The notes under the pieces are model-generated. The model saw only the letters and a list, made by a program, of their open reading frames with translations, had not been told where the DNA came from and made no database searches. From a bacterium (GTDB lineage Bacteria > Zixibacteria > MSB-5A5 > GN15 > FEB-12): a DNA stretch of 49,380 nt. This document shows, one piece after another, positions 30,860 to 47,400 of this stretch (position 1 is the stretch's first letter; every line of letters starts with the position of its first letter). The DNA lies in the NCBI GenBank assembly GCA_030605565.1, contig JAUWIB010000138.1, positions 1 to 49,380 of the forward strand, written 5' to 3'. Made by a program: the position numbers and the translations under genes.

Positions 30860-33800
30860 CAAAACCCAGCCACCAGTTCGCCGCGTCCGGTGAGACGAGC
30901 CCTGCGATTATCGGCGTGTCTTCCGGTGAGCGAGAAATTGAGGCGGAGTTCGCCCTTCAGACCATAGTTCAGGCGTACCGACCAAATGGCTCCACGTTTC
31001 CCCGGCTTGTTGTCGGTCAGGAAGTAAGATGGCGTCGCCCCCATATCCGTGAGTCGCTGCGTGTACAACTCAATCAGGGTGCGTAGCTCTCCCTTGCGGG
31101 CCAGTTGCCGGCGCGCGCCCAGCGATGCCAGGTAGATCCGTGAAAGTTCACCCTGCGATGATTCAGCGCGGCGATAGGCTCCACCGACAGTCAGTTCCAA
31201 AGCTGAGAAGCGTCGTCGGGCCGACAACCCGACTTTGAAGCCGGCAACATCACCGCCCCCCCCGTACGACCGGTCGCGATCGATTTGAAAGAGATCGAGC
31301 GTCTCCTCAAGGAACAGTTCGTTGACCACCTGTTTCAAACTGACTGATTCCTTACGGTGCGAACGCTGTCGGACCTCACCGGCCGCCAACCGCTGCTGCA
31401 TGTCCTCGCTGTACGACAAGTTGACTACATGAAAACTGTGTATCCTGGCCAACCGTAAATCGGCGTCGTATCGTCGGTCGTAGAACAGGAACGGTTGTGA
31501 CTTGTCCGAGAGAAAGGGAACGATCCAGTACCATTCTCGTGTGCCCTCATCGAGCAGTTCCTCTTCGATGCGTGAATCGAAACGAATGTACACCTGGCTG
31601 AATTCCCGCCTGAGGTGAAAACTTCTTTCGCCGCGCCGCACGCGGGAACGGTCGGAAAGAAGTTCTTCGACCTGGATGTAATCGCCGTCCGGGTCGGGCA
31701 GGTAGGTTCCGTCTTGAAAGATGAAGTTCCCTCGGCCCGGCTCCACTTCCAGATAGGTCAGGCCACGGGCATTGCGGGTCTCGGTGGAAACAACATAAGC
31801 GCCGTCGACCGTTAGATTTCGTTTGCCGTTATGATAGCGATAGCCCAAACGTCCGAGAAAACTCTTCTCCGAGGACAAAACTCTGTCCAACCACTGGTGT
31901 GTCACCATGAACTGGTAGCTGAGATCGCCGAGCCGCCGATTTGATGTCAGTGAGGTGCGTCGGTGCTGAAATGTCTGAAGCCACCGCCCGGTCAGGCTGT
32001 CCTCGTGGTACTGTTCGTATCGGAGGCTCTCATTCCGGCCACTCAAACCCAGTTCGTAACGCTGGTAACGGGTCCCTTGCCCGGCCCCACGGTAGTCATG
32101 TTTGCGATTGTCAGACTCAAGCAAGGACGATAGGGTAATACCATCGGCCAACAGTAATCGCACTTGTCCCATAGCGTACTCACCGTTGCCGCGCTGTGTA
32201 CTATCCCCGGACGTGAACCTCGATCTCATCTCTTCAAACCCGGCAACAGCCTCGACGCGATGATGGGGCTTCATTTCAGTTCTCACGTTGACTTTGTTCG
32301 AGCTAAAGGCGTGCTCATACTCAAGACGTGAGAGTCCCGTGCGCACGGTCACAAATCGGCTCGGCGTTACCGTCCCCTGCCAACGGTACAGGGTCTCATC
32401 CGATGTTGGCGCGTACTTTTCCGGGAGTAAAAACTCGCGTTGGAACTCCGGAGCGTTCAAGCGTTCATGCGTTCGGTACTCCGTTTGGCGATGACGGACT
32501 TCGAGTGACAGCTCATTGGCGCTCGATGACTTTCCGAACTTCCTGTCCAGTCGCAGAAGGTAGTACAGCCCGTCGTTGTCGCTGTCATCGAGAGATGAAA
32601 ACAAGTTGCGGTCATAAACGCTTTGTCGTATGTCAGCGCTGATTTGTCCCAGCACACGGCTTTTCAAGCGGGCGCGCAGGCGGTAATGATCGGCACGCTC
32701 CGGGGCAATCGGCGCGACGACCGGAAGGTAATCGCCGCCCCCGTCACCGACGAATTCGTACTGGTCGGCGCCGAGGAATCGATAACTGCCCGCGGCGACG
32801 CCGACGAAACTGAAGGTAATGCTATAATCGCCACTCTCCCGACCCACGTACTGGTAAACCGAGTCCGGCAGACTGTCGGTTACCAGAAGGTACGACCCGG
32901 TCGAGTCCGGTCGCACGCCGGTGCGCACGGCCAGCGCTGTGCTGTCACCAACCTCGGCGAGCAGCCGGCGATCTTCGGCGGTCGGTTCGCCCCACAGCGG
33001 CTGATCCTTATCGTCACCGTCCCGACGCAACTCCAGAGCTATTGTCAGCAATGAGTCCCCGAATACGGCGCTCCCCCCGGTTGACAACAGTTCGCCCTTG
33101 TAACCGCTTGCCAGTGGTTGGAAATCGACCTCGATACGTCGACGGCTGTCGATTGGGTGGTTGACGTTGAAGGTGATGCGGCCGGTTGGGTAATCGACGG
33201 TGTAGTCCTTGTTGGCGCCGCGTTCGAGTTGCTCGCCGTCGAGCCACACTTGTTCTGAGCGCGGCGCCACCGGCTGCGGTCGTCCGGACTCACTGATCGC
33301 GTAGGGTCCCTGCAAACCGTCATGCCCCATGAAGCGCACCGAGGCATACCTGCCTTTGGGGCGCGCTGCCAATGCGTCGACATGCCAACGCTCCCTTTGC
33401 ACAACGAACATGGCGCCGGATGCTGCGCGCGACGTGGGCGCGACCAATGACAGACGGTCGACCGTTTCGATGTCGCCAACCTGCGCCGTGACAGATGGCG
33501 AGGTCAGCCTCAGGTTGACTTTGTCCAGTTCATTGAGGCGGCTGTTGGCCGTGCCGTAGGAAGGGTCGTAGCCTCGATCCGACACGGCGCCGCTTATCAG
33601 TACTCCCGGCGCCAGTTCGCCAGAGATCGTCAGGTCCAACGACTGGCTGAACTCCGATGATCCGGCGGTGCGGGCTGAGAACCGAAACGATTTGGCGCCG
33701 CTGATGGATACACTAGATGCGGATGTTGTCGACGTCATGCCAACCGGCCGTTGCTGTGGCCGGGGAGTCGTGACCGCAGACGTGGAGGCCGGTGGCAGTT

Positions 33801-34353
33801 CGCGTCCGTAGCTCACCTCCAGCCAGGGCGGCAGTTTCTGGTAGCAGGCGATCAGGGTATCGCTCGGTGAAATCTCAAGTGATGAAAGATCAAACGCACC
33901 CAGGTTCGTGCTGAATGAGTAGTCATCACCGCGTTGCAGTAGTCGACCATTGAGATACAGGGAATCGGACTCGTGAAAGATAAAATGCGAGCCGATAAAG
34001 AGTCGCTTGGGAATCTCATCTGAGGAAAGCACTTTGCGGATGCCGACGGCGTGAGAGCTACCAGCCAGCATGAGCAGTAGCGCCAGGCATAGATAGGTTT
34101 TGTGGGCGGCAGACGTTCTAAGGCTGTCCCATGGGTTCGTTTCGCCGGGTCCTGAGATCGACGCAGTCGAGATTGTGCCCCGGCGATCTTTCCAAACGGT
34201 TGCGGAGAGTACGCTTAAGGAACCGGCGGTTCTCACGACCTCCTCCGGATGTCGAAGGAACCACCGGAACATGTACTTGTGGGACAGCCTCTCCTCGTCT
34301 GCCCCTGTATCCACGTGGCGCCCGAGGACGTACACCACGCACAAAACCTCCAA
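30859..34353 (-). CDS. Large outer-membrane beta-barrel protein with SprA-like motifs
   Basis: The frame is open for 1164 codons, but about the first 85 are encoded by repeat DNA, and the true start is unsettled. The signal sequence (TYLCLALLLMLAGSSHA) is encoded at about 34098-34046. After it comes an N-terminal strand region (LFIGSHFIFHESDSLYLNGRLL), a Thr/Pro-rich linker, then GHDGLQGPYAISE and EQVWLDGEQLERGANKDYTV with DYPTGRITF. Those recall the repeated motif of the Bacteroidota SprA/Sov translocon, though SprA is about twice as long. The remaining 700 residues are barrel-like strands ending GRGELVAGF. It is coupled to the BamA-like gene. SprA identity is only a suggestion. Confidence 0.6.
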   Translation of the reverse strand: MEVLCVVYVLGRHVDTGADEERLSHKYMFRWFLRHPEEVVRTAGSLSVLSATVWKDRRGTISTASISGPGETNPWDSLRTSAAHKTYLCLALLLMLAGSSHAVGIRKVLSSDEIPKRLFIGSHFIFHESDSLYLNGRLLQRGDDYSFSTNLGAFDLSSLEISPSDTLIACYQKLPPWLEVSYGRELPPASTSAVTTPRPQQRPVGMTSTTSASSVSISGAKSFRFSARTAGSSEFSQSLDLTISGELAPGVLISGAVSDRGYDPSYGTANSRLNELDKVNLRLTSPSVTAQVGDIETVDRLSLVAPTSRAASGAMFVVQRERWHVDALAARPKGRYASVRFMGHDGLQGPYAISESGRPQPVAPRSEQVWLDGEQLERGANKDYTVDYPTGRITFNVNHPIDSRRRIEVDFQPLASGYKGELLSTGGSAVFGDSLLTIALELRRDGDDKDQPLWGEPTAEDRRLLAEVGDSTALAVRTGVRPDSTGSYLLVTDSLPDSVYQYVGRESGDYSITFSFVGVAAGSYRFLGADQYEFVGDGGGDYLPVVAPIAPERADHYRLRARLKSRVLGQISADIRQSVYDRNLFSSLDDSDNDGLYYLLRLDRKFGKSSSANELSLEVRHRQTEYRTHERLNAPEFQREFLLPEKYAPTSDETLYRWQGTVTPSRFVTVRTGLSRLEYEHAFSSNKVNVRTEMKPHHRVEAVAGFEEMRSRFTSGDSTQRGNGEYAMGQVRLLLADGITLSSLLESDNRKHDYRGAGQGTRYQRYELGLSGRNESLRYEQYHEDSLTGRWLQTFQHRRTSLTSNRRLGDLSYQFMVTHQWLDRVLSSEKSFLGRLGYRYHNGKRNLTVDGAYVVSTETRNARGLTYLEVEPGRGNFIFQDGTYLPDPDGDYIQVEELLSDRSRVRRGERSFHLRREFSQVYIRFDSRIEEELLDEGTREWYWIVPFLSDKSQPFLFYDRRYDADLRLARIHSFHVVNLSYSEDMQQRLAAGEVRQRSHRKESVSLKQVVNELFLEETLDLFQIDRDRSYGGGGDVAGFKVGLSARRRFSALELTVGGAYRRAESSQGELSRIYLASLGARRQLARKGELRTLIELYTQRLTDMGATPSYFLTDNKPGKRGAIWSVRLNYGLKGELRLNFSLTGRHADNRRARLTGRGELVAGF
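34101..34343. repeat. 243-bp element with inverted arms, family 3, copy B
   Basis: This is the same element as 24971-25213, in the same orientation and exactly the same length. The left arm is 34101-34131, the right arm 34276-34343, and the 144-bp core is unrelated to copy A. It lies between the NHL lipoprotein gene and the large barrel gene. Its left arm reads directly into the barrel protein's signal peptide. A GGAGG followed by GTG (34338) sits at its right end, but this may be chance. Confidence 0.75.
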
Positions 34354-34374
34354 TCGTTATGGGTCAGCCACTTA

Positions 34375-34438
34375 GAGATTGCCACGGTCGCCTGCGACGA
34401 CCTCGCAATGACGATTGCGGCGTTTCTCAACAACCTGC
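34375..34438 (+). repeat. Dispersed repeat, family 2, copy C
   Basis: GAGATTGCC...CCTCGCAATGAC (34375-34412) is followed by GCGTTTCTCAACAACCTG. It matches the right arm and AT-rich tail of the element at 2289-2365. Its tail touches the stop codon of the NHL lipoprotein gene. Confidence 0.6.
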
Positions 34439-35388
34439 TAGTCCGGTTCATCATACAGGATGCGATAGATCACCAGGCGATTATTGCCGCTGTCGGAAAT
34501 CATCAGGCGTCCATCCGGCAAGGCGGCGATATCACGAGGATTGCGCAATCCCTTCTTGTCCCCGACCAACATCGGAATCGCCACGAGAGGTCTTCGTCCG
34601 CCGATATCGAGACAGACTACTTGACCACTAGATGCTTCCAATACCCACAGGTGATTTCCGTCGAAGGTCATGGCTACCGGATCGCTCACCACTGCTCGGG
34701 TGATCTCGCGCGAGAAACTACCGTAGGGATCATAGAATACCAGGCGCGAGTTACCTTTGTCGGCTACCACGAAGTCGCCGTCGGGAATTGTCGTGACTTT
34801 TTCCGGGCTTCGAAGCTGCCCGCCGGCGTACCCGAATTCACCGATGAAGCGGCTGAATCTTCCGGCGTTGTCAAACAGAGCGATACGATCCTGGTCACGA
34901 TCGGCAACCCAGACCTCACCATAGTCGGTCACGGCGACTCCCGAGGGATGACCATACTTGAAGGGGTCATCTTCGTCGCGGAGCTCGATCTCGTCGACAA
35001 AATTGAGCCGCGCATCGTAGCGGACGATGCGGCGATTGCCTTCGTCGACCACCAGAAGGTTGAGAGCGTTATCAAGAGTGACAAAAGTGGGATTGTTGAG
35101 CAACCCGGCGCTGAAACCATAACCCCCGATTTCGTGGGTAGCGTTCAGGGTCGAGTCGAAACGTAACAGACGATTGTTGCCGTTGTCCGCAAGGTAGGTG
35201 ATTCCGTCGGGGGCAACCGCCAAACCCACCGGGTTCTGAAGTTCCTGTCCGAGTATCGTACCCGTGATCACCTGCTCCACCAACAATGCTGCGGGTGTTT
35301 GAGGATGGGTTGGTCGGACGTGTGGTCCGCGAGGCGGGCCGCTACAGGCTAAGGAAACCAGTATCAACAGAATCGAAAGTCGGTACAT
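34438..35388 (-). CDS. NHL-repeat beta-propeller lipoprotein
   Basis: This 316-residue protein starts at the ATG 35388, with GAGG seven bases upstream; the longer frame start at 35424 would overlap the next gene's end. The lipobox is LVSLAC (Cys15). The mature part has six or so NHL repeats, each with a pattern such as NPVGLAVAPDGITYLADNGN, HPSGVAVTDYGEVWVADRDQ and NPRDIAALPDGRLMISDSGN. These form a beta-propeller anchored to the membrane. NHL propellers bind proteins or ligands; some relatives are lyases, but no catalytic evidence is seen. It follows two DUF5683-like genes on the same strand. Confidence 0.85.
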   Translation of the reverse strand: MYRLSILLILVSLACSGPPRGPHVRPTHPQTPAALLVEQVITGTILGQELQNPVGLAVAPDGITYLADNGNNRLLRFDSTLNATHEIGGYGFSAGLLNNPTFVTLDNALNLLVVDEGNRRIVRYDARLNFVDEIELRDEDDPFKYGHPSGVAVTDYGEVWVADRDQDRIALFDNAGRFSRFIGEFGYAGGQLRSPEKVTTIPDGDFVVADKGNSRLVFYDPYGSFSREITRAVVSDPVAMTFDGNHLWVLEASSGQVVCLDIGGRRPLVAIPMLVGDKKGLRNPRDIAALPDGRLMISDSGNNRLVIYRILYDEPD

Positions 35389-35410
35389 ACATAGCCTCGC
35401 CCGCCGAGCG

Positions 35411-36217
35411 TCAGAAACGGGCAAACAGTGATACCTGAACCTGCCGGTCGATGCTCAGCGGATCGATATCCAGGCGATAACCGAACCGCCGCTGGTCGTC
35501 AGCCGCCGGGGTCGCGCCAAACAGTTTGCGCGTTTGTCTGGCGTCGCGAACAGCATCGATAACCGACACGATCCGATTGAGAATCATCAGACCGATTGTA
35601 TAATCTCGTCTGCGAAATGCTTCGCGACTACCGTTTTTCAACTCCCGATAGGCCGCTTTGTCGGCCGGATCACGCCAGCGCCAGTGGTTGGATTCGTTGT
35701 CGATCAGGTACGGGCGATCACGGTCCTGAACCCGACCCTGTTCGTTAAAGTGATCGATATCATCGTAAAAACCGACCCAGTCACGAAACAGGTCGTCCTT
35801 GTCCTCAAGCTCGGCGCCGGCGCGTTCGCGGGCAAAGTTGATGTAGTCGTCCTCTTTCCACGTGCCGTAGGTGTGATAGGACAAATAACCCAGCCACGAG
35901 AGAGCTTCGGCCGCGAAAAAATATCGAGCTTTTTTGCGGTTACCGACATAGTACTCTCCAAGACCGGGCAACAGCGCCGAGTAGAGCACGGCCCTGGATA
36001 CGGACTTGCGGTCGGGATGGGCCTGTTTCACGCCCCAGTCATCGCGATCACGTTGGGCGAGACTGGTCGGCATAGATGAACCGGAGACGCCAAGCGTCGG
36101 TGTCTGTAATTCGATTGCAAGTTCCGTCTGAATAGGTGTCGGCTCCAGATTCAGAACGGCGCCGGCTGGCGATCCAAAAGCCAAACTCAGTCCAATTATG
36201 ATCCAGCAATTCTTCAT
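35411..36217 (-). CDS. DUF5683-like membrane protein, copy 2
   Basis: This 268-residue protein starts at the ATG 36217, at the beginning of a signal peptide (NCWIIIGLSLAFGSPAGA); the frame extension to 36274 overlaps the preceding gene. The hallmark is SRAVLYSALLPGLGEYYVGN, then KKARYFFAAEALSWLGYLSY, a Gly/Pro membrane hairpin typical of DUF5683/TM2-like proteins. A charged region and a second membrane segment (YTIGLMILNRIVSVIDAVRDA) follow, and a barrel-like end (QVQVSLFARF). It is a paralogue of the gene at 36232-37197. Function unknown. Confidence 0.65.
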   Translation of the reverse strand: MKNCWIIIGLSLAFGSPAGAVLNLEPTPIQTELAIELQTPTLGVSGSSMPTSLAQRDRDDWGVKQAHPDRKSVSRAVLYSALLPGLGEYYVGNRKKARYFFAAEALSWLGYLSYHTYGTWKEDDYINFARERAGAELEDKDDLFRDWVGFYDDIDHFNEQGRVQDRDRPYLIDNESNHWRWRDPADKAAYRELKNGSREAFRRRDYTIGLMILNRIVSVIDAVRDARQTRKLFGATPAADDQRRFGYRLDIDPLSIDRQVQVSLFARF

Positions 36218-36231
36218 GCGTTCGTCAACTG

Positions 36232-37197
36232 CTAAAACTTGTAGCTGAATGTCACGTATGGGGTGTCCTTCCACGAAGAATACGACCGTAGCGACGGTTT
36301 GACATCCACATTCGAAAACGGCTGATTATACTTCAACCCGTGGTTGTGCCTCTTGGTGGCGAAAAAGGCCTCAAAGGCGCTGATCAGGTGATTGCCCATG
36401 ACGACAAACACCATTTTCATCCCCTTATCATACTCTTGGTTGGCATCGTCGCGCATATCTTCATAGATCAGTCGGTTGGCCGAATGCGGTATGTACTCGC
36501 CGGCCGCGACATACATGTTATTGATCGACTCCCTCAGATTCTGGTCTTCGAGCGTGGCGTCGTCCCATCCCCAGGAGAATTGGTTGTACTTGCCGGTCAT
36601 CTCGTAGTACTGCTGGTCCCTCTCATTGGGGAGGATGTGAGTAAACCCCCTTCGCATCTCCGAATCTTCCAGAGTGTCCGGTCGCAGGGTGCCGTAGGCG
36701 GACATCAGGTAGGCCTGGTAAGCCTGATAATCTTCGTCGCCAATAGTGTAAGTGACGCCGTCCACGTTCCAGTGGTCTCGGTTGAACTTCTCGAACTCCG
36801 CCGTGATGTCGTCCCCGTTGCCGTGATACTTGAAAGCCTGGGACAGTCCGAATACTTCAACGGCCAGAAAGAGCAAAGGCTTGAGCTTGCTGCCGGAATA
36901 GTATTGTCCCAGCCCCGGAACCGCCAGAGAATACAAGAACGCTCTACCCGGGGACTTGTACTCCGGTGGTCGCACATCAACCTGGGCCAGGTCGGCCAGC
37001 GTGATATCATCTTCGGCGTCGACCGACAGACCTTCGTTTGATTCAACCCCCTCGTTGCTGAGACTGTAGCGCACTTTCTGCAACTCGCGATCAAAGAGCG
37101 ACTGTCCCACATCAGCCCGCGCCGAACCGACCATCCAGCAAGTTGACAGTATACCCAGCCCGGCCAGGAAACCGACTAATCTCATTTTCTTGAACAT
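36232..37197 (-). CDS. DUF5683-like membrane protein, copy 1
   Basis: This 321-residue protein starts at an ATG with AAGGAG eight bases before. It has a signal peptide (VGFLAGLGILSTCWMVGSARA) and a paired membrane motif (RAFLYSLAVPGLGQYYSGSK...PLLFLAVEVFGLSQAF) that matches the neighbouring gene. A long acidic, aromatic-rich middle (about 120-225), a second membrane segment (MKMVFVVMGNHLISAFEAFFA) and an end DTPYVTFSYKF follow. It is probably an envelope protein. It lies 12 bp after the M6-like protease gene, so they are likely co-transcribed. Confidence 0.65.
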   Translation of the reverse strand: MFKKMRLVGFLAGLGILSTCWMVGSARADVGQSLFDRELQKVRYSLSNEGVESNEGLSVDAEDDITLADLAQVDVRPPEYKSPGRAFLYSLAVPGLGQYYSGSKLKPLLFLAVEVFGLSQAFKYHGNGDDITAEFEKFNRDHWNVDGVTYTIGDEDYQAYQAYLMSAYGTLRPDTLEDSEMRRGFTHILPNERDQQYYEMTGKYNQFSWGWDDATLEDQNLRESINNMYVAAGEYIPHSANRLIYEDMRDDANQEYDKGMKMVFVVMGNHLISAFEAFFATKRHNHGLKYNQPFSNVDVKPSLRSYSSWKDTPYVTFSYKF

Positions 37198-37209: not shown

Positions 37210-40200
37210 TTATCTGATAACGGCAATATCTGTGAAGGCGGTTTTGGTTTCTCCGCCAAAATCTACTTCAATAAGACAGCGATAAACCCCCGGCGTTGCC
37301 TCGCCACACACCCAGGTTTTTTCATTGTCGACGCCGCCTGAAGTGGGTCCAACGAATCGGGCCACCTCACGGCCGGAAAGATCATAGATGGCAAACTCTA
37401 CCCGCGATGCCTCCCGGCCCAGGAAGTATCGAATCGTAGTCGCGCCGTCGACCACCGGATTAGGGTAGTTGTAGAACTTCTCTTCCGGAAACAAATCGGA
37501 AAACTGCTTAGGCGCCGCTAGGTCGGTTGCATCAAAGGCAAAACTTCCCTCGGGATCATGGCCGCCCATAGGCCAGTGGTTGGAGACGGTGTCGGCGGCA
37601 ACCTCCCAGGCGTAGAACCATCCGTCGGCGCCGAGATAAGCCAGCCGTCCCGCCCCTGATGTGTCAGCGAAGATCAATGATGACCCCGCGCCGCGTTCAC
37701 CAGCCGGTAAGGGGAATCCGTACGACAAGTTCGGCCCGAATGAATAGATGTTACCGGCGAAAGTGGGGAAGACCAACTCCGGTTGGCCGCCTTTTTCGAT
37801 GTCTGCGATTACCGGCGCTGCTACGGGAATATCTTCATAGTATCCAAAGAAGTTGATATCATCGTACTGCAAACGGTCATTGATCTCGGCAGGATAACCG
37901 GTCAGCAAAGTCAACTCGCGGTTGAATGCGTACACGGCGTTGGCGCCGCCAATAACCAGGTCAGGATACCCATCAAGGTCGATATCCCCGGCCACCGGAT
38001 TGGTGGTGAAGGTGTAACCGGTTTCCCTGGACGCGGTCAGCGTAAAGGGAGAGGTCGACCCGGCTGTCGTCAGGTCAACCGAAAGCAGCATGGCCCGTCC
38101 ATCATACGAGAAAACCGCCACCTCCGGCGTGCCGTCCCGGCCCACATCCACCAGGATCGGACCAAGATCATAGTATCCATCCAGGGTGTATGCGACACTG
38201 TCGGATGAATTCAGAAGCCACAGCCGTGTTTGCTCAGAACTATTGTCTACCAGCGAATCGCCCGCCAGGAGTATAAGACTGGAACCGTAGCGACAGATAC
38301 CGTGGTAGGTCTCTTCGTCGAAATCATAAAGCTCCCGTTCCGGTGGTATCAGGTCTTCTTTGAGGTAGATGCTGCCGCTGTTGGTCAGAACCCACAAGCG
38401 ATCGCCAAAGGACAAAGCGATGGGCGCGCCCGAAGTGAAAAAATAAGGTTGGGCCGGGGGGATAGGCGGATCGGCCAGTCCGTCGTCGTTGGCATCCGCC
38501 GGACGATAGAATGCCACTCGTCCAGCACCGCCAACGGGATAGCCGACCGCGACAAACTTCTCCGGGAGACCCAGTCCGAAATCGCCGGTCACCGGGCCAG
38601 CCGAGATTTCCTCGGGTGTTTCTGCGAACAACGGCAAGGGATGCAGACGACCGGTGTGAACAGAGGCCAGGGCCGTGTCGTAGTATGTGCTGCAAGGGTC
38701 ACACTGCGATATCTGATGAATGAAGTTCTCGCCGTCAAGCGTGACGGCCAGAAGGTTTCGTCCCGAGGCGAAGATGATCTCGTTGGTCCCATCGAGGTTC
38801 AGATCGTCCACTATCGGCGAGAGGCCAAGAACAGGTGAACCCGCCCGCACCGGAAAACCGTCGACCAGTCCATCGGTCTGGAGGTCAAAGGTGATCACGG
38901 TGTCGATCCTTCGGCCCGGCCCGGTCGGTCTCAGCCGACCGATATGTTCGATTCTGACATGGGTGTCGTTTCCGGAGTTATCTATTGCCGGTGGGTTGGT
39001 GTTGGGTGTGAAGGAGCGCTTACGGTCGTCGCGAAACATATCTTCGGCTGATCCATAGCGCCGCCGACCGGTTTCATAGTAACCACTCATGTCCACCACA
39101 CCGTCGGCCTCCATTAGCCGGATGAAACGTCGGGAGGGCACCAACTGTAACCGGTTATCCTCGAAATTGATGACGGTATCACCGGTGAACCAGTCGTAGT
39201 TCAAGCCCGCCACACCTTCGTCAATATGGTAGATCAACAGTCCGCTTCCCGGCAGGAGAAAGTCGTACTCCCCGGTGAACTCCCGGGTGACCGTATCCAC
39301 AGGATACTGGATCACGCCGGTGGCGCTATCGGCCAGCAGTCCGGTAACGATGTCGGGGAAGAGGTCGTCGACTCGGTTTTCGATCAGGTAATATTCATTT
39401 TCGGAGATAGGGACACGGGCGATCTTGGTGGCGTCAGTGGCAATCTCCGCTGCTGCAATGTAGATATCGGTTCCGGCGCGGAAATCGACCACATCTACAA
39501 ATCCCAGAAAAGCGCGCGACCAGGCGCACGGATAGACCGGAATGGTCCCGAAAGCACCGCCGGCGTCGAAGCCGAAGTCGACGCTGGTGTGGAAGCCGTT
39601 GTGATCCATAAGGGCGAAATCGCCGAGGTTGGTGATGAAGTAATCGGTTCGGTACAGATCGAGCAACCCCAGTTGGTGACCAAACTCGTGGGCGATCACG
39701 GCATTCATTGCCGTGGCGCGGTTATCTTGATTGGCCGTTTCGGGCAGGATCAACGCATCCCAAATGGTGGTCGAATCGTTGTCGACGTGGAGGGTATCAA
39801 AGAACACGCTGTCCGGCACGAAATTTACGTAACCGGTAAACAGATCAGAACAGGTCGGCGGGAACCCAATATCGTTCTGACGGTCACTCCCGGCATGAAA
39901 CAGGAAGTACGAGTCATAGTTGTAGAACTCGATCTCCGGCGATACCGAATCAGCTACCTCGAAACAGTCGACGAAATAGTGCACCAAACCGAATATGACG
40001 GTATCGAATTGTTCCTCGGCAGGCAGGCTGGCGCCACAGATGCCATACTCGCTCATTCTTTCCGGCAACCGATAAGCAGAGTCGCGGCTGGGTGGCCAGA
40101 TATCCCAGTCGAGCGTGATTTTCCCCTCGCTGACTGTTTCCCAATAGATCTTGAGGGCCTCCAGGTGGGCATCGAAGTAAAGGGAGTCATGCGGGGGCGG

Positions 40201-40599
40201 ATCGATCCAGTGTTTGATACGGTCGTAGTAGGCGGCAGAGTCAACTGGGTTGGCCAGCGGCCGGGAAAGATCCATCTCACCGTTACCGGTGGTGTTGGGG
40301 TCATCCGTCTCTTCGGCCTGAAAGTTGAACCTCATCACCAGGATTTTGATCGTAGCCAGAGGCTCAGCCAACCCCCTGGTCGGCAGCGACCATGGTGACT
40401 TGCGCTCCAAACCAAAGTCTATCGAGCGAGCGCGTCGTTGGGCCAGCGAGTGATGCTGCACCTTGTTATCGGTCACGCTGTTCTCATCCCGCTGGCGCGT
40501 TCCGTAAAGCAAACGATCGCCCGCTTGAACCGGCAGCGCCAGTGCGGCTACCAGTATGACAGCGAAGAGTGTTCGGATTATGTCGATTCTTGATTGCAA
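37210..40599 (-). CDS. Secreted M6-like metalloprotease with propeller and C-terminal sorting domain
   Basis: This 1129-residue protein starts at a TTG preceded by AGGAG (9-base spacing), with a signal peptide (RTLFAVILVAALALPVQAG). The zinc site HEFGHQLGLLD lies near residue 303, in a domain like M6 (immune inhibitor A) peptidases, with DFALMDHNG as a possible third-ligand/Met-turn region. Residues about 580-1030 hold FG-GAP-like propeller blades (DLNLDGTNEIIF, DVGRDGTPEVAVF, DIDLDGYPDLVIG). The last about 90 residues are a sorting-type domain (NYPNPVVDGATTIRYFL, FAIYDLSGREVARF), as on type IX secretion substrates. It is encoded right after the PorV-like gene and is a natural substrate candidate. 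Confidence 0.85.
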   Translation of the reverse strand: MQSRIDIIRTLFAVILVAALALPVQAGDRLLYGTRQRDENSVTDNKVQHHSLAQRRARSIDFGLERKSPWSLPTRGLAEPLATIKILVMRFNFQAEETDDPNTTGNGEMDLSRPLANPVDSAAYYDRIKHWIDPPPHDSLYFDAHLEALKIYWETVSEGKITLDWDIWPPSRDSAYRLPERMSEYGICGASLPAEEQFDTVIFGLVHYFVDCFEVADSVSPEIEFYNYDSYFLFHAGSDRQNDIGFPPTCSDLFTGYVNFVPDSVFFDTLHVDNDSTTIWDALILPETANQDNRATAMNAVIAHEFGHQLGLLDLYRTDYFITNLGDFALMDHNGFHTSVDFGFDAGGAFGTIPVYPCAWSRAFLGFVDVVDFRAGTDIYIAAAEIATDATKIARVPISENEYYLIENRVDDLFPDIVTGLLADSATGVIQYPVDTVTREFTGEYDFLLPGSGLLIYHIDEGVAGLNYDWFTGDTVINFEDNRLQLVPSRRFIRLMEADGVVDMSGYYETGRRRYGSAEDMFRDDRKRSFTPNTNPPAIDNSGNDTHVRIEHIGRLRPTGPGRRIDTVITFDLQTDGLVDGFPVRAGSPVLGLSPIVDDLNLDGTNEIIFASGRNLLAVTLDGENFIHQISQCDPCSTYYDTALASVHTGRLHPLPLFAETPEEISAGPVTGDFGLGLPEKFVAVGYPVGGAGRVAFYRPADANDDGLADPPIPPAQPYFFTSGAPIALSFGDRLWVLTNSGSIYLKEDLIPPERELYDFDEETYHGICRYGSSLILLAGDSLVDNSSEQTRLWLLNSSDSVAYTLDGYYDLGPILVDVGRDGTPEVAVFSYDGRAMLLSVDLTTAGSTSPFTLTASRETGYTFTTNPVAGDIDLDGYPDLVIGGANAVYAFNRELTLLTGYPAEINDRLQYDDINFFGYYEDIPVAAPVIADIEKGGQPELVFPTFAGNIYSFGPNLSYGFPLPAGERGAGSSLIFADTSGAGRLAYLGADGWFYAWEVAADTVSNHWPMGGHDPEGSFAFDATDLAAPKQFSDLFPEEKFYNYPNPVVDGATTIRYFLGREASRVEFAIYDLSGREVARFVGPTSGGVDNEKTWVCGEATPGVYRCLIEVDFGGETKTAFTDIAVIR

Positions 40600-40616: not shown

Positions 40617-43364
40617 CTACAGTAATACCGATACCGAGACACGCAACGTGTTTCGCAGTGACTCCGTCGATCCGCTGGGGATGTAAGAAAAGTCGAACTT
40701 GAACTTGTCGAAAAGCGACAAACCCACCCCCAGTGTCATGGTCTTGACGGCACCCTCTTCGTCATGTATATACCCGGCGCGCAGCGCAAAGATATTGGCA
40801 TACAGGAACTCCGCTCCGGAGTTGAGAATCAGTTGTTTCAACTCCTCGCTCAGGCCATCATCCACGCCGACCAGGATTTTGTTCACCTCCGAGGTCACCA
40901 GCAGTTGGTAGTACTCGGACTGAAGCAACTTGTAGGCGAAACCAACAGCCAGGTTGCGCGGCAGGTGGTCAGCCTGGGCGGCATCAATATAAGCCATCTT
41001 GGGACCGAGGTTGGTGAGAGCCATCCCCAGGGTCAGACGATGCGACAACATATACATCAACCCGAAATCCACGGCAAAGCCGGCCGATGTTCCCTTGCCC
41101 TTTTCCAGACCGGCTCCAAGATCAGACAGTTTGGAATAAAGCACCTTGGCCGACAAACCGACCTTGAGACGCGAAGTCAGAGCCGTACCGTAGGAACCGG
41201 TAAAGGAAATATCAAAACTATCGAACGAACCGAGTGTGTCGGCCGCCTCGTTGGTTCGCAGGAATTCCCCGTAGGAGATGAAAGTGATGTTACCGCCGAA
41301 GGTACCCCATTCCTCGCTCGAAGTTACGAACGACACGAATTCGTAGTATACGTCGTCGGTGAGTTCCGGCAGCCACTTTACGTGCATCAGTGTAATCTGT
41401 GACAGGGCGTTGGCCTTGGTGACGATCTTGTTGTCACCGACCAGCCACAATTCATCTTCCACTGCGTACACGTCGGCGGTCGGTCGGCGATCGAGGCCTC
41501 TGATATTGGCCCGTTCCCAGTAATAGCCGTCATAGGTCAACAGGCCGACGTCGGTCGCAAAGAAGAGCCGTTCACCACTACGGGTGATATCATAAATACG
41601 CGCCGCTGCCGGGTTGCGATACATCTTCACTCGGCGTCCCACTACGAGAGGGTCGTCATCGAGATCGTTGATATCTTTCAACAACTCAGCGTAGGCTTGG
41701 TGATCTGAGCTATCTTCGTGCTTCTTGACATCGACCAGTTGGTCAAAGGTCTCGCCCTCTTTCATGCGATAGTCTCGGTATCCCGGCATCGTCCAGGTCG
41801 ATCCGTCGAAATACAGCAGACCATAGTCGGTGCCTATCCAGACACGATTGTTGGGTCCGCCATAGATGGCATTGACCTTACCTTTGATTGAGGCCAGGTA
41901 GGGCGCCCGCACGATGTTGCCGGGCTGAAGACCGTCGGTGGGAGCAGTGTCGGGAGCGCCTGGGTTGTCGCTTACTGACGGCGTACCGGTGGTGTCAGGT
42001 ATCGCGCTGGAATCAGAGGCTGAATCGGTGTCGCTTAGGCCCTCGGCTACCATCGACATTATATTTCTGGCGCCGTCATCAGAGCCGGCTGGGTCCACCA
42101 TGCCCACACCGCCGGTAGCCTCGTTGGCCTGTATAAACTTCTCGAGATAGATCTTTCGCTCAGTGGGAGAGCCGTAGACAGCAAAGCGCTCGGCAATCGA
42201 TTCCGGGGTGTCGTCGAGGACGACCTTATAGCTCATACTGTTAGACCATCGCCGTCCGTCGAAATGGTAAAGGTCGTCGCCAACAACAATCCAGAGATCG
42301 TTCTGTGAATGACCACCGATCGCTTGTACCGGCCCGCCGGGCAATTGGTCGACACCTTCAACCGGCGCCAGCCGCCGGCCGAAGAACCGAACCGGACCGT
42401 TGCTGGTGCCGATGATAGCCATGTTCTGGACGGTATGGATGGATAGAATGGTGTCGGAGGGGAGTCCATCCTCAATCGACAGTGTCTGCCAACTATGACC
42501 GTTGTAGACTACAAGACCGTCATTGGTTCCTACCAGCAGATTCTTGTCAACCGCCGCGATTGCCGACGGCTCACCGGCATAATTGATGCCGTAGGGAACA
42601 GTGAGTTCTTCCTTGATGAACCGTGAGCGCGCCTTTTCGACGGCCACGGCGATTCGGTCGGCCTCCACCTCAGCCAGACTGCTGTCTTTCAGACCGTCCT
42701 TGAGATAACGCTCAATGTCGTTTACCCGATCCCAATTGATGCGGCACTCATTATAACCGGCCAGCAAAGTGTCCAATAATGACTGAAGATATCCCGACCC
42801 GGAGTAATCTGCTTCCACGGCTGCAATAACCCTGGATGTGATATCCTCCAGGTAGGCGTATTCCCTATTGTTATTGACGGCAGCCACTCGCTCGACCATG
42901 CCTTGCAAGCGCTCTTCGTCGGTCACGTTGAAGTAGGATGCCAGGATTTTCTTGACTGTTTGATCCGTCTTGGTGCTGAACCGCTCATGGACAAACCAAT
43001 CCTTGTTATCAAAGCGAACCAACCCAGCCGGGGTCAGGGCCCAGATTTCATACGCGGTGTAGTCACCGCCGCCACTCTGCTTAAGCGTCGCTATCGCCTT
43101 CAACGGTCGGAAGCGTTCCGGAATACGCGCCTCTATCCATGAATCGGCCAGGGGGTATGCGCCCAACCCGGCGGGATTCCAGTGAGTGGCCGTGGCATCA
43201 TCGGTAATGGCCACATACGCTTCGCCCATAGCCGCGGCGCGCGCACCCGGCGCGATTCTGAGATAAAGCACGGCGGCGTTTGATATATCCGCCCAGGCAT
43301 CCCCTGCCAGCGCCAGTGAAACCATCACCACGGCCAGCAGGAAAAATATCGGGTATCGCTTCAT
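40617..43364 (-). CDS. PorV-like outer-membrane barrel with a large beta-propeller insertion
   Basis: This 915-residue protein starts at an ATG with GAGGAGAAGGAA before it, and has a signal peptide (1-26). Residues 30-70 carry the PorV/PorQ start (IAPGARAAAMGEAYVAITDD, then ATATHWNPAGLGAYPL). The barrel then stops: residues about 80-650 hold a helical part and two-component-regulator-type propeller blades (VDKNLLVGTNDGLVVYNG, GPNNRVWIGTDYGLLYFDG, FATDVGLLTYDG). There is also an Asp/Ser/Thr/Pro-rich linker (about 435-480). The barrel resumes at HVKWLPELTDDVYYEF (about 658) and ends TLRVSVSVLL. The two barrel parts together (about 330 residues) equal a normal PorV. It lies 13 bp after the PorU-like gene. 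It probably shuttles substrates to the sortase. Confidence 0.8.
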   Translation of the reverse strand: MKRYPIFFLLAVVMVSLALAGDAWADISNAAVLYLRIAPGARAAAMGEAYVAITDDATATHWNPAGLGAYPLADSWIEARIPERFRPLKAIATLKQSGGGDYTAYEIWALTPAGLVRFDNKDWFVHERFSTKTDQTVKKILASYFNVTDEERLQGMVERVAAVNNNREYAYLEDITSRVIAAVEADYSGSGYLQSLLDTLLAGYNECRINWDRVNDIERYLKDGLKDSSLAEVEADRIAVAVEKARSRFIKEELTVPYGINYAGEPSAIAAVDKNLLVGTNDGLVVYNGHSWQTLSIEDGLPSDTILSIHTVQNMAIIGTSNGPVRFFGRRLAPVEGVDQLPGGPVQAIGGHSQNDLWIVVGDDLYHFDGRRWSNSMSYKVVLDDTPESIAERFAVYGSPTERKIYLEKFIQANEATGGVGMVDPAGSDDGARNIMSMVAEGLSDTDSASDSSAIPDTTGTPSVSDNPGAPDTAPTDGLQPGNIVRAPYLASIKGKVNAIYGGPNNRVWIGTDYGLLYFDGSTWTMPGYRDYRMKEGETFDQLVDVKKHEDSSDHQAYAELLKDINDLDDDPLVVGRRVKMYRNPAAARIYDITRSGERLFFATDVGLLTYDGYYWERANIRGLDRRPTADVYAVEDELWLVGDNKIVTKANALSQITLMHVKWLPELTDDVYYEFVSFVTSSEEWGTFGGNITFISYGEFLRTNEAADTLGSFDSFDISFTGSYGTALTSRLKVGLSAKVLYSKLSDLGAGLEKGKGTSAGFAVDFGLMYMLSHRLTLGMALTNLGPKMAYIDAAQADHLPRNLAVGFAYKLLQSEYYQLLVTSEVNKILVGVDDGLSEELKQLILNSGAEFLYANIFALRAGYIHDEEGAVKTMTLGVGLSLFDKFKFDFSYIPSGSTESLRNTLRVSVSVLL

Positions 43365-43377
43365 TTCCTTCTCCTCA

Positions 43378-46300
43378 TTAATTGACTACTACTACTTTTC
43401 CAAACATCTCGACTGGCTCACGATCATCAACAGATCGAGCCGTCGCCTTGTAAATATAGACTCCGGTGGCGACGCGGTCGCCGGTGAAGTCCTCTCCTCT
43501 CCAGATGAACTCGTCATGGTATCCGGGGGAGAGTGAGTTTTGACTATAACTCTTAATCTTTCGACCGGAAAGTGTAAAAATCTCCAGGGAAAAACTTTCC
43601 AATTGGCGCGCCGCATAAAACGAAAACCGGGTGACGTCCTGCATCGGATTCGGGTAGTTCAAAAGGTCTACTATAGCCGGCCCGTCGGCAGCGACGATCT
43701 CTGCGGCGAACTCCGTTGAGGCTGAGTTATTGGCGTTATCCCACGCCTTGATTTTGAAGTCATGGCGACCGACGGTAAGGCTGTCAAGGGCATAGCCAAC
43801 ACTTCCGCGCGTATAATTGTCGGTGTCATATTCGAACCGGCTGGTTAGGTTAACGACCTTATCGGAGCGACCGTCGATCTCCAGAGTTACGCCGTGTCCG
43901 AGGCCGCCGGCCAGGTTGATGCCGGACGAGTCGCTCAGCGTTATCTGAAGGTGATCGTCCGATTGAATCGGATCACCACTAACGAACCCCTTGCGGCTCA
44001 TGATCTGATAGCTAATCGACGGTCCAATACTGTCCGTCACATCGGCGATGGAGTCGATGACATAAATGGAATCAACGATACCGGCCGCATCGATCGTGTC
44101 GAAAGTCGCGTAAGCCATGATCCGAGCGCTCCGACCGCCAAAGCCGATATCCAGCGGCGGCATGAATTCAAAGTCGAACCGGCCAGCCTCAATGCCGGCT
44201 GTACCGCGATAGATGCCGGCGCCGTTGACAGCGTACTCAATAGTCCCCCCCGTACCACCGTGTTCAGCCGAGTTGTAGCTCCGCCGCTTGTCGGAGTCGT
44301 ACACTCTGATGCTCAGGAAGCCATTGGCAGCCACCGTGTTGCCGAAATCGTCAATTATCTCTCCGCTGACTCTTGCCGGACGCAAGGCCACCAGACTGTC
44401 CGGCGCCGTCAGATAACGAATTCCCAATTGAGGTCGCGCCAGTTTCACTAAAGGGTCACCGATGAAGATAAAAGCCCGATCGTTGTTGGTTAATGTGCTC
44501 GGCCCGCCCGCCCAAAGCTGGTGCAGAAGTTTGGCCGTGTAAATCGTCTCACACATGGATAACTCATCGGAGTTGAAAAGGACATCATAGACCGTTTGAT
44601 TAAACTGTTTGTTGGGAGTTGCCCAGACCAAACGGGTGGCCGAAACAACGGCGATCGCCCCGCCGTCCGGGCTGGTGATCAACTCTTCAGCCATCGCCTT
44701 ACCTTCCGGGCCGTCATAAGCGCCGATAGCACAGGACGCGGCCAATACCAGGGGAAGCCGATCGGCGTTGGTCAACCTCGGCAGGTCGTCGATGATCGTG
44801 AGAATCCGCTCGTGAGCCCACAGACCGGGGTTGCCGTGACCGACGTAGTTTACCACCAGGCGTCCCGCGTTGAAAGCATTCACGATTGCGTTATTGACAC
44901 TGGGCTTGCGCGAATTCACGAAAGGATGCTCGATAGCATATATCTTGTCACGCGAATATAATCGCGGCAGATGGTACATCTGCAGAGTGTCGGTTTGTCC
45001 GGTATGCACCAACTCAGAAGTGCGCGCACCGGCGAACTCGTCATCGGCCACCAACGCTATCTCAGTTCGCCAGAGACCGAAATTCGACGGTGATTCGTAA
45101 CGTCGCGTTTTGTCGATGATGGTACGTATCTCGCCCACGTCACGCACTGTCCAGCGAGCCGAAATCATGTCTACGCCGCGGTCCGCACCCGGGCTGTAAC
45201 TGGTGTCGCCGTCCAGAACACCATACTCGCCGAAATAGACGTAGTTGTCGTCGCTGTATGCGAATGAATTGTCATACGGATGTATGAACGGCGGTACGTA
45301 ATTGGGTGCATCATCTCCGAAGTGGTTCAGGAAATCATAATGCCCGTCACCAACCAGGAGCATCATCGAGGGCGCCGGCTCCGGGTAGTTCTCGTAGGCG
45401 AATTTCAGATAGTCCCTTATGGCCACCGGGTCGAACAGACCGTAGGCGAAGTTCTCGATAATATCTTCGACCGTAACCATCCGAATGGACACACCCTCCG
45501 CCTGACGGTAGTCGATGTACTCCTGCATGGCGTCGGTGAACTGATTGGCTGTAATGATTATCAAGTCAGCCTGGTTCCCGGGTGAGCGCAGGTCGGTTGT
45601 CATCGTCCTGCTGATTGATGCCGGAGCCAAGGTGCGGTTGCTTGTCGTAGCATAGAAGTGGCTGGGGTGTGACGGGGTCAAGGCAACCGCAAAGGAAATA
45701 AGACCGCCCTGTGAAACATAACCATCGATCAACTGTGGTCGCAACGGGGTGCCGATATCCAAGATCATGGGCGCCTGCGAGAAACCATCAACCAGTTCGA
45801 TCCGCGCCGGACCGTCGTAAGCGACCAGGTTGAACTCCAGTCGGTCACTCACTGGTGTCAGTTCACATTGATACATGACGTTGACGTAATCAAGGAAGGG
45901 ACTACGAGACTCGTAGGTGGAAAATGTCAGCCGGAACTGGTTGAGCCCCTCGCGCAGTGAGGCGACGGCGAAGGTGCAACTGGAGTCGTCGCATGATAGT
46001 TTCGCTGCCGTCCCACCGGAGACCAGCAGCGTGTATGAATCGCCGTAAGAGGGTAGCTCTGCCACCACTCGTACCTCGGCCGGAGGTCCCGGCACCACGT
46101 TGGTTGCGGCGATATAGAATGAAGGGCTCAGTTCGTCGGTCCAGAACCAGCGGTAGAAATCCCGGAGATGGCCCATGTTATCAATACTAAAGATAGTGTC
46201 ACGCTCGGAATGAACATGACGACGAAAAGAGGTGAAAACGGTATCTTCGAATCCGTCGGGTGTGCCATCAACGCCGGTCATGCGCAGACCGGGAGAACCC

Positions 46301-47232
46301 ACCGATTCGGATACGGTCAGCCAGTAGATATTGGACTCAGTGTAGTGGTGGTGGTGATACCTGGCGGAATCGAAGGGGCCATACAGCCAGCGGTTGACCG
46401 ACTCACCATAAAACAGAATATAATCATCGCGGTCGAAAACTCCGTCGTTGCCGTCTTCGACGATAATAGCCACCTCACGAAAATCCGGCCGGGGGCGGTC
46501 ATTAGGAACTTCCAACTGACGGCCGCCGCCGTTGAACAAATGTATGTCGTCCGATTCCAGGCCGGTGAGTATCATTCCCGCGTTCTGCAGTTGCGCTCCG
46601 GTAACTTTGTAAAGACCGCTCTGATCGACAGCCACCCGGTACCATTCGGAGACGTCCGCGAAAGAACTTGTTGCCAATTGTCTCCCAGCCCGCTTCGTCT
46701 CAGTCGGCCATCGGCTCATCTGGTCGTAATTGGCAACCACGGCCTCAAAGATACGATCGAAAAACGGGTCGGCGGCTGTCGGTACATCGCTGGAGCGACC
46801 GCCATGATAGCGGAGATGCACTTCCACTTGTCGATAAATAGTACCGCCGGACACCGGGTAGACACGTAGCGCCGCCAGTTGCCGACCACGGACTCGAAAC
46901 GAGGGCATGATACGAACCGGTTCTCCGGAGCGGGCCGAACGGTCAAGCTCGCTTGAAGCTATCGACGTTGGCCGGTGTCGTTCAGCCGATATCAACTGAA
47001 CCGATCCACCGGGCGGCATAGCGATCAGGGTTACGCTGTAGAACTGCCGAGTGGAGTCGGGGCCGGTTTCCTCAAACAGATCAGAGGGGTCACTGGGGAT
47101 ATTGAATCTGAAGCGGTACTCCGAACCGTCAGACGCGATTGTCTCAATATCCGCAGCGTTCAGCCCACACGGGTACAGCCCAGCCAGAATGCCGATGAGC
47201 AGAAAGAATGATTTACACAGAGTTCTGTCCAT
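43378..47232 (-). CDS. porU: PorU-like C25 (gingipain-type) peptidase with C-terminal sorting domain
   Basis: This is a 1284-residue protein. The frame reaches 47298, but the ATG at 47232 begins a proper signal peptide (CKSFFLLIGILAGLYPCGLNAA). N-terminal strand domains come first. The C25 catalytic domain (about 555-920) follows, with LLVGDGHYDFL, the catalytic His in VNYVGHGNPGLWAHE (near 797) and Cys in LAASCAIGAYDGPEGKAMAE (near 832). Ig-like domains come next, and a final sorting domain (NYPNPMQDVTRFSFY, LEIFTLSGRKIKSY). PorU is the type IX secretion sortase that removes substrate C-terminal domains and keeps its own. Adjacency to a PorV-like gene supports PorU over a plain gingipain. 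Confidence 0.82.
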   Translation of the reverse strand: MDRTLCKSFFLLIGILAGLYPCGLNAADIETIASDGSEYRFRFNIPSDPSDLFEETGPDSTRQFYSVTLIAMPPGGSVQLISAERHRPTSIASSELDRSARSGEPVRIMPSFRVRGRQLAALRVYPVSGGTIYRQVEVHLRYHGGRSSDVPTAADPFFDRIFEAVVANYDQMSRWPTETKRAGRQLATSSFADVSEWYRVAVDQSGLYKVTGAQLQNAGMILTGLESDDIHLFNGGGRQLEVPNDRPRPDFREVAIIVEDGNDGVFDRDDYILFYGESVNRWLYGPFDSARYHHHHYTESNIYWLTVSESVGSPGLRMTGVDGTPDGFEDTVFTSFRRHVHSERDTIFSIDNMGHLRDFYRWFWTDELSPSFYIAATNVVPGPPAEVRVVAELPSYGDSYTLLVSGGTAAKLSCDDSSCTFAVASLREGLNQFRLTFSTYESRSPFLDYVNVMYQCELTPVSDRLEFNLVAYDGPARIELVDGFSQAPMILDIGTPLRPQLIDGYVSQGGLISFAVALTPSHPSHFYATTSNRTLAPASISRTMTTDLRSPGNQADLIIITANQFTDAMQEYIDYRQAEGVSIRMVTVEDIIENFAYGLFDPVAIRDYLKFAYENYPEPAPSMMLLVGDGHYDFLNHFGDDAPNYVPPFIHPYDNSFAYSDDNYVYFGEYGVLDGDTSYSPGADRGVDMISARWTVRDVGEIRTIIDKTRRYESPSNFGLWRTEIALVADDEFAGARTSELVHTGQTDTLQMYHLPRLYSRDKIYAIEHPFVNSRKPSVNNAIVNAFNAGRLVVNYVGHGNPGLWAHERILTIIDDLPRLTNADRLPLVLAASCAIGAYDGPEGKAMAEELITSPDGGAIAVVSATRLVWATPNKQFNQTVYDVLFNSDELSMCETIYTAKLLHQLWAGGPSTLTNNDRAFIFIGDPLVKLARPQLGIRYLTAPDSLVALRPARVSGEIIDDFGNTVAANGFLSIRVYDSDKRRSYNSAEHGGTGGTIEYAVNGAGIYRGTAGIEAGRFDFEFMPPLDIGFGGRSARIMAYATFDTIDAAGIVDSIYVIDSIADVTDSIGPSISYQIMSRKGFVSGDPIQSDDHLQITLSDSSGINLAGGLGHGVTLEIDGRSDKVVNLTSRFEYDTDNYTRGSVGYALDSLTVGRHDFKIKAWDNANNSASTEFAAEIVAADGPAIVDLLNYPNPMQDVTRFSFYAARQLESFSLEIFTLSGRKIKSYSQNSLSPGYHDEFIWRGEDFTGDRVATGVYIYKATARSVDDREPVEMFGKVVVVN

Positions 47233-47400
47233 ACGAAACCGGGACCTCATCCCGGCCCTGGAACCGAAGTACAAATATAGCAACGGTCTCGGGGCCACAA
47301 GTGACCTACCTTAATATTGTGCCGACCTCGCCAAGTCGGGTGAAACAACCAGATAACCGTTAAGCTATACTTATCTCCTTCATCACTGTATAATCGACAG

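What the first reader, a model, noticed from the sequence alone, without database searches (positions are those of the whole stretch)
40617..43364. A PorV-like barrel interrupted by a ~570-residue propeller domain
The first ~75 residues carry the PorV/PorQ signature (GARAAAMGEAY, HWNPAGLG), and the last ~258 residues continue the same barrel from HVKWLPEL. Together they make one normal-length PorV. Between them lies a helical segment plus propeller blades of the two-component-regulator type. PorV is the shuttle that hands substrates to PorU, so an inserted binding propeller could change how cargo is caught or displayed. I know of no described PorV with such an insertion.
Basis: partly seen in the sequence, partly recalled or inferred. 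Interest (0 to 1): 0.72.

Follow-up and report, generated by a model that had tools for sequence, protein, structure and literature searches.

The report
PorV with inserted periplasmic LysM propeller
[quoted passage not shown] it probably hangs into the space under the outer membrane, suggesting a carrier that holds on to the cell wall.

Summary
Window 40617-43364(-) is one intact 915-aa ORF: a PorV plug (residues ~29-70), a ~585-residue insert, then a complete 14-strand PorV barrel (656-914). It is neither a fused gene pair nor an artefact: 128 of 132 genomes of the phylum (78 of 78 good ones) carry a relative, and all 46 proteins aligned share the split, in a conserved porU-porV-M6 operon. 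Six genomes of other lineages also have a split PorV, five with this propeller. Most others have a compact PorV joining plug to barrel at exactly this point, an 'empty site'. Its place argues against 'catch or display cargo': it leads into strand beta1, whose far end (the beta1-beta2 loop) holds the equivalent of cargo-contacting PorV Asn87, so the insert should be periplasmic. A separate PorZ-like propeller protein exists, so this is not a captured PorZ. Best explanation: a PorV with a built-in periplasmic module that binds peptidoglycan and anchors or positions the carrier. Anatomy is well supported, periplasmic location likely, peptidoglycan binding inferred. No description found in the papers searched. 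A new variant of a known kind.

The parts
40617..43364 (-). split PorV, 915 aa, whole ORF
43287..43364 (-). predicted signal peptide, about residues 1-26 (by eye, ...DAWA|D)
   Evidence: sequence; not tested with a predictor
43155..43280 (-). PorV N-terminal plug with GARAAAMGEAY and HWNPAGLG, residues 29-70
   Evidence: PF19572 profile 10-47; 6h3i chain 7-64; no barrel strand here; conservation 0.85, highest of the parts compared
41400..43154 (-). inserted module, residues 71-655
   Evidence: absent from compact PorVs of other lineages, where plug and barrel are 1-13 residues apart
43005..43109 (-). propeller blade 1, residues 86-120
   Evidence: hhalign blade-to-blade, AF2 strands
42579..43004 (-). 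LysM-like domain A, residues 121-262, containing a helical segment (about 168-245) that is missing in L134, L135, L136 and in L052/L058
   Evidence: hhalign to B 96.4% and C 93.0%; beta-alpha-alpha...beta in AF2
42255..42578 (-). propeller blades 2-4, residues 263-370
41883..42254 (-). LysM-like domain B, residues 371-494
   Evidence: Pfam LysM 16.6 bits here (cut-off 20.9), 48.0 in L049 and 34.3 in L047 at the equivalent place
41937..42098 (-). disordered acidic/Ser/Pro-rich linker inside domain B, residues 423-476
   Evidence: pLDDT < 50, poorly conserved, 26-61% gaps
41787..41891 (-). propeller blade 5 with the Reg_prop match, residues 492-526
   Evidence: PF07494 20.2 bits, cut-off 20.4; 37 of 46 relatives match at E<=0.1
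41595..41798 (-). LysM-like domain C, residues 523-590
   Evidence: folded alone: E-H-H-E, pLDDT 71; Foldseek hits dominated by LysM proteins, prob up to 0.98 but E >= 0.15
41400..41609 (-). propeller blades 6-7, residues 586-655
40620..41399 (-). PorV barrel, 14 strands, residues 656-915
43378..47298 (-). upstream gene porU (T9SS sortase, peptidase C25 plus C-terminal sorting-type domain)
   Evidence: NF033707 661.4 bits, cut-off 420; PF01364 E 3.9e-79
37210..40599 (-). downstream gene: M6-like metalloprotease with a weak T9SS type A sorting-domain match
   Evidence: NF052323 267 bits (below cut-off 600), TIGR04183 21.0 bits (below cut-off 23); operon neighbour in relatives

Best explanation
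This is the T9SS carrier PorV of a Zixibacterium, and it should do PorV's ordinary job: receive the C-terminal domain of cargo at the SprA translocon and pass cargo to PorU on the outside of the outer membrane. It differs by a ~585-residue module spliced between plug and first barrel strand, which by barrel topology hangs into the periplasm. The module is a seven-bladed propeller with three LysM-like domains on blades 1, 4 and 5. The most likely role is periplasmic: the LysM-like domains bind peptidoglycan and the propeller acts as scaffold (or binds a partner), so that the carrier is anchored or positioned relative to the cell wall. Shown or well supported computationally: the split architecture, the barrel and plug, three mutually homologous LysM-like segments, phylum-wide conservation, the porU operon. 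Inferred from topology: periplasmic location. Inferred from family knowledge only: peptidoglycan binding and anchoring.
For: Architecture. Topology: in AF2 the even connections between strands (684-686, 729-732, 773-776, 816-818, 856-858, 884-887) are 3-4 residues, while five of the seven odd ones are 9-17 residues (705-709 and 869-872 are 5 and 4); odd-side loops are better conserved than even-side turns (0.66 vs 0.45); PorV Asn87 and Phe115, whose main chains contact the cargo lysine (PMC10994853), align in the phmmer alignment (residue-counting mine) with residue ~670 in the beta1-beta2 loop and ~698 in the outer part of beta3, so the other end of beta1, where the insert attaches, is periplasmic. 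LysM: Pfam LysM above cut-off in L049 (48.0), L047 (34.3), L135 (27.3), L053 (24.9); 24 of 46 relatives match at E<=0.1; segments A, B, C mutually homologous (93-97%, controls under 2%); beta-alpha-alpha-beta in all three; Foldseek on C alone. Conservation: 128/132 genomes have a relative; operon porU-porV-M6 in 24 of 25 phylum loci, the last cut by a contig end. Insert-free orthologues in the same operon.
Against: The window's own LysM (16.6 vs 20.9) and Reg_prop (20.2 vs 20.4) scores are just under Pfam's cut-offs. LysM folds do not always bind peptidoglycan: some are structural (phage and injection-system baseplates, among the hits) or bind other ligands. PorV is described as a shuttle that leaves the translocon; a wall-bound PorV would shuttle less freely. 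pTM 0.66 leaves the propeller-to-barrel arrangement open, and I had no coordinates to inspect. Alignment depth was only 46 sequences. Foldseek E-values for domain C are weak (0.15 and up).
Confidence: 0.6

Rival explanations
1. The periplasmic module is a docking or force-transmitting handle: the propeller binds another T9SS part (SprE/PorW-like, hub or energy chain), so PorV with cargo can be pulled off SprA; the LysM-like domains are mainly structural.
For: In F. [quoted passage not shown] PMC12635249). No GldM or GldN match, and no GldL match over cut-off, in this genome, so this lineage may couple energy differently. Propellers commonly bind partners.
Against: No partner identified. The absence calls are weak: the GldN model matched nothing in any of 68 genomes nor in the controls. 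Three copies of a carbohydrate-binding-type fold are more than a mere spacer needs.
Confidence: 0.2
2. The propeller is a surface domain that catches, displays or modifies cargo, or a PorZ fused into PorV.
For: PorZ, a surface T9SS component, has two seven-bladed propellers related to BT4663 (PMC5121618); the PorZ model gives sub-cut-off matches to the insert in relatives (up to 40.9 bits in L047, cut-off 260).
Against: Topology places the insert on the face opposite the cargo-binding loops. Zixibacteria keep a separate PorZ-like ORF (G109:C9, 727 aa, full profile length, 218 bits, cut-off 260; G000:C123, 769 aa, profile 408-756). LysM-like domains point to the periplasm.
Confidence: 0.08
3. 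The insert is a sensor: the propeller and LysM-like domains monitor peptidoglycan fragments or envelope state and gate PorV.
For: The closest solved propellers after PorV are the ligand-sensing domains BT4673, BT3049 and BT4663.
Against: No signalling output domain in the protein; no kinase or regulator among the neighbouring ORFs scanned.
Confidence: 0.1

Closest known systems
[quoted passage not shown] johnsoniae 6h3i/8gl6 and P. gingivalis
   Same: plug, 14-strand FadL-like barrel, cargo-side loops, porU neighbour
   Different: here ~585 residues lie between plug and beta1 where F. johnsoniae PorV has about 10
PorZ, surface A-LPS delivery component of the T9SS
   Same: Reg_prop-type seven-bladed propeller in a T9SS protein
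   Different: PorZ is a separate secreted protein with two propellers and a CTD on the cell surface; Zixibacteria have a separate PorZ-like ORF as well
PorE (PG1058), periplasmic T9SS lipoprotein
   Same: propeller plus peptidoglycan-binding-type domain, proposed to anchor the T9SS to the cell wall (PMC7192894; full domain make-up from my own knowledge)
   Different: separate lipoprotein with TPR and OmpA_C-like domain, not part of the carrier; no OmpA-family match in the insert
BT4663/BT4673/BT3049 periplasmic sensor domains
   Same: propeller fold
   Different: two propellers plus Y_Y_Y domain on an inner-membrane kinase; no LysM, no barrel
PorQ and other compact PorV/PorQ-family barrels
   Same: same barrel family; four compact members in this genome
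   Different: no insert; the split protein scores higher on the PorV model (168.8) than on PorQ (81.6), and it is the one next to porU

Membership tests
T9SS PorV | PorV/PorQ family profile NF033709 over cut-off | tested here: met
   229.8 bits, cut-off 90; PF19572 69.6, cut-off 27
T9SS PorV | PorV equivalog model NF033710 over cut-off | tested here: inconclusive
   168.8 bits, cut-off 250; the porU-linked compact PorVs L141 and L145 also fall short (207.9 and 213.1), so the cut-off appears tuned to Bacteroidota
T9SS PorV | 14-strand FadL-type barrel with N-terminal plug | tested here: met
   14 strands in DSSP of the model; Foldseek best hits 8gl6_F and 6h3i_F, TMt 0.61-0.62
T9SS PorV | linked to porU in a genome with SprA | tested here: met
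   porU adjacent, 661 bits; SprA_N over cut-off in the genome
T9SS PorV | binds cargo CTD and shuttles it to PorU | not testable with these tools
LysM domain | Pfam LysM PF01476 over its cut-off | tested here: inconclusive
   window protein 16.6 vs 20.9; relatives L049 48.0, L047 34.3, L135 27.3, L053 24.9
LysM domain | beta-alpha-alpha-beta fold | tested here: met
   three copies in the AF2 model; Foldseek on copy C gives mainly LysM structures, weak E-values
LysM domain | binds peptidoglycan or chitin | not testable with these tools
   needs a pull-down
Reg_prop propeller | Reg_prop PF07494 repeats over cut-off | tested here: inconclusive
   20.2 vs 20.4 in the window; over cut-off in L047 (58.0), L049 (41.0), L136 (59.6) and others; seven mutually homologous blades
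PorZ | NF052228 over cut-off, with CTD | tested here: not met
   13.0 bits, cut-off 260; protein ends in a barrel, no CTD
PorE | TPR, propeller and OmpA_C domains in a lipoprotein | tested here: not met
   no TPR or OmpA_C match; barrel protein

The most novel reading that the evidence does not exclude
In Zixibacteria and some other lineages the T9SS carrier itself holds the cell wall: PorV is tethered to peptidoglycan through LysM domains on its own periplasmic propeller, taking over the anchoring or energy-coupling role that separate proteins (PorE, the PorK/N hub) play in Bacteroidota, and so works as a fixed hand-over station rather than a free shuttle.
Probability: 0.22. Interest if true: 0.8.

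Novelty: new variant of a known kind. Interest (0 to 1): 0.6.

Why it matters
PorV's mobility and the source of force that pulls it off SprA are open mechanistic questions in the T9SS. A naturally occurring PorV with its own periplasmic, probably wall-binding module, conserved across a whole phylum, shows that the plug-beta1 junction is an insertion point used by evolution and gives a direct way to test whether tethering or a periplasmic handle controls carrier release. It also indicates that T9SS machinery (SprA, PorU, PorV, PorZ-like) is widespread well outside Bacteroidota, in a form the literature searched here does not describe.

Tried and rejected
Frameshift-fused neighbours or assembly artefact: rejected, same ORF in many independent MAGs. 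A captured PorZ: rejected, separate PorZ-like ORFs exist. Ras-like hit to 528-597 in the PDB search (E 0.34 and worse) is chance. Search for motor parts: GldM none, GldL only under cut-off, GldN none, but these searches lacked a convincing positive control, so absence is not shown. Origin of the insert: the tree of plug plus barrel puts the Zixibacteria in one group (88/98) but cannot say whether the split forms of other lineages share that origin. Ten literature searches found no T9SS paper on Zixibacteria and none linking PorV with a LysM domain.

Full report
What is there. The ORF at 40617-43364(-) is intact, 915 aa. Its ends are PorV. Pfam PorV PF19572 matches in two pieces, the PorV/PorQ family model NF033709 scores 229.8 against a cut-off of 90, and F. 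johnsoniae PorV (6h3i) aligns to residues 8-66, 657-837 and 825-911, total E 1.5e-23. The break corresponds to chain residues ~64 to ~74, between the NPA motif of the plug and the first barrel strand. Upstream is porU (NF033707, 661.4 bits, cut-off 420) and downstream an M6-like metalloprotease with a weak type A sorting-domain match. The genome has SprA. The organism belongs to Zixibacteria: two of the five nearest relatives found by name are Candidatus Zixiibacteriota MAGs.

Structure. AlphaFold2 on an alignment of 46 relatives gives mean pLDDT 81.6, pTM 0.66, with most of the insert above 90. DSSP shows helices and coil for residues 29-70 (plug), propeller strands, and 14 strands from 656 to 914. 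So the barrel is wholly C-terminal and complete; the N-terminal part is the plug. Foldseek against the PDB returns PorV first (8gl6_F, 6h3i_F), then BT4673, BT3049 and BT4663 propellers, then TodX, TbuX and FadL.

The insert. Slices of the alignment compared by hhalign show seven mutually homologous blades (blades 1 and 7 weaker) and three further segments, A (121-170 plus 244-262), B (371-412 plus 476-494) and C (523-590), homologous to each other at 93-97% probability while control pairs stay under 2%. Each has a beta-alpha-alpha-beta order in the model. LysM (PF01476) scores under its cut-off in the window protein (16.6 vs 20.9) but over it in relatives (L049 48.0 and L047 34.3 at the place of B, L135 27.3, L053 24.9), and 24 of 46 relatives match at E<=0.1. 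Domain C folded alone from 30 sequences (pLDDT 71.4) gives E-H-H-E and hits mainly LysM structures in the PDB, with probabilities up to 0.98 but E-values of 0.15 or worse. Domain A carries an extra helical segment missing in L134, L135, L136 and in L052/L058, so it looks like a later addition.

Which side of the membrane. Between barrel strands the even connections are 3-4 residues; five of the seven odd ones are 9-17 residues, the other two 5 and 4. Short periplasmic turns and long outer loops are the rule for such barrels (general knowledge). Odd-side loops are also better conserved, 0.66 against 0.45. In the F. johnsoniae structure the conserved cargo lysine contacts main-chain carbonyls of PorV Asn87 and Phe115 (PMC10994853). 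Counting along the alignment, Asn87 falls at residue ~670, inside the beta1-beta2 loop, and Phe115 at ~698, in the outer part of beta3. The loop after beta1 is therefore the cargo side, and the start of beta1, where the insert joins, is the periplasmic side. This is inference from topology, not a measurement.

How widespread. With P0001 as query, 128 of 132 genomes of the phylum have a relative, 78 of 78 of good quality. In 46 aligned members the stretch between plug and barrel is 415-730 residues. The order porU, split porV, M6 gene is kept in 24 of 25 phylum loci; the 25th starts at a contig end and keeps porV-M6. Among sampled genomes outside the phylum, 46 carry SprA. Five of these have a PorV split by a propeller (G282, G267, G134, G219, G230; the last is cut at a contig end) and one, G260, has a ~490-residue insert at the same site with no propeller match by Pfam or by the A1 profile, which reads as helical. 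About 26 have a compact PorV-family best match. In the eight compact examples read, plug and barrel are 1-13 residues apart at the site where the insert sits, all eight have the M6 gene next door and five have porU in the stretch held. The tree of plug plus barrel groups the Zixibacteria (88/98) but leaves open whether the other split forms share one origin.

Not a captured PorZ. Relatives' inserts give weak matches to the PorZ model, but Zixibacteria keep a separate PorZ-like ORF, for example G109:C9 (727 aa, whole profile, 218 bits, cut-off 260) and in this genome G000:C123 (769 aa, profile 408-756).

What it probably does. PorV carries type A cargo away from SprA, and release of the carrier-cargo complex is the energy-requiring step (PMC10994853). 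Cargo loops look untouched here. A periplasmic propeller with LysM-like domains would most simply anchor or position PorV at the cell wall, as PorE is proposed to do for the T9SS of P. gingivalis with its own peptidoglycan-binding domain (PMC7192894). A docking or pulling handle for the energy chain is the main rival. Peptidoglycan binding is untested. Absence of the Bacteroidota motor is suggested but not shown.

Novelty. Ten searches of the open-access library found no description of a T9SS in Zixibacteria, of a propeller-split PorV or of LysM in PorV; I judged most of these papers by title and abstract, and subscription papers are mostly not held. I rate it a new variant of a known kind.

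Noticed in passing
window 37210-40599 (-): M6-like metalloprotease matched best by NCBIfam NF052323, 'T9SS-dependent M6-like inactivated metalloprotease' (267 bits, cut-off 600), but here the sequence still has an HEFGH motif, so it may be active. It is the constant third gene of the porU-porV operon, inside and outside the phylum.
   Followed up: partly
L137:1762-4263 (-), genome G260: A PorV from another lineage with a different, apparently all-helical ~490-residue insert at the same plug-beta1 site and no Pfam or A1 match in it; the site may be an insertion hot spot.
   Followed up: partly
G000:C123:26174-27169 (-): Separate PorZ-like ORF (769 aa frame) in the window's own genome, under the NCBIfam cut-off.
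   Followed up: no
window 29222-37197 (-): Genes downstream of the operon: two DUF5683 proteins, an NHL-repeat propeller, a 1164-aa protein without Pfam match (only a 17-bit match to SprA TIGR04189, cut-off 200) and an Omp85/POTRA protein; looks like an envelope-biogenesis cluster.
   Followed up: partly
L050:3983-7123 and L051:4103-7261 (+): Split PorVs with the longest inserts seen (727 and 730 residues against 534-631 in most others).
   Followed up: no
L002-L005 (genome G000): Four further compact PorV/PorQ-family barrels in the same genome; L005 is nearest to PorQ (173.6 bits, cut-off 220).
   Followed up: partly
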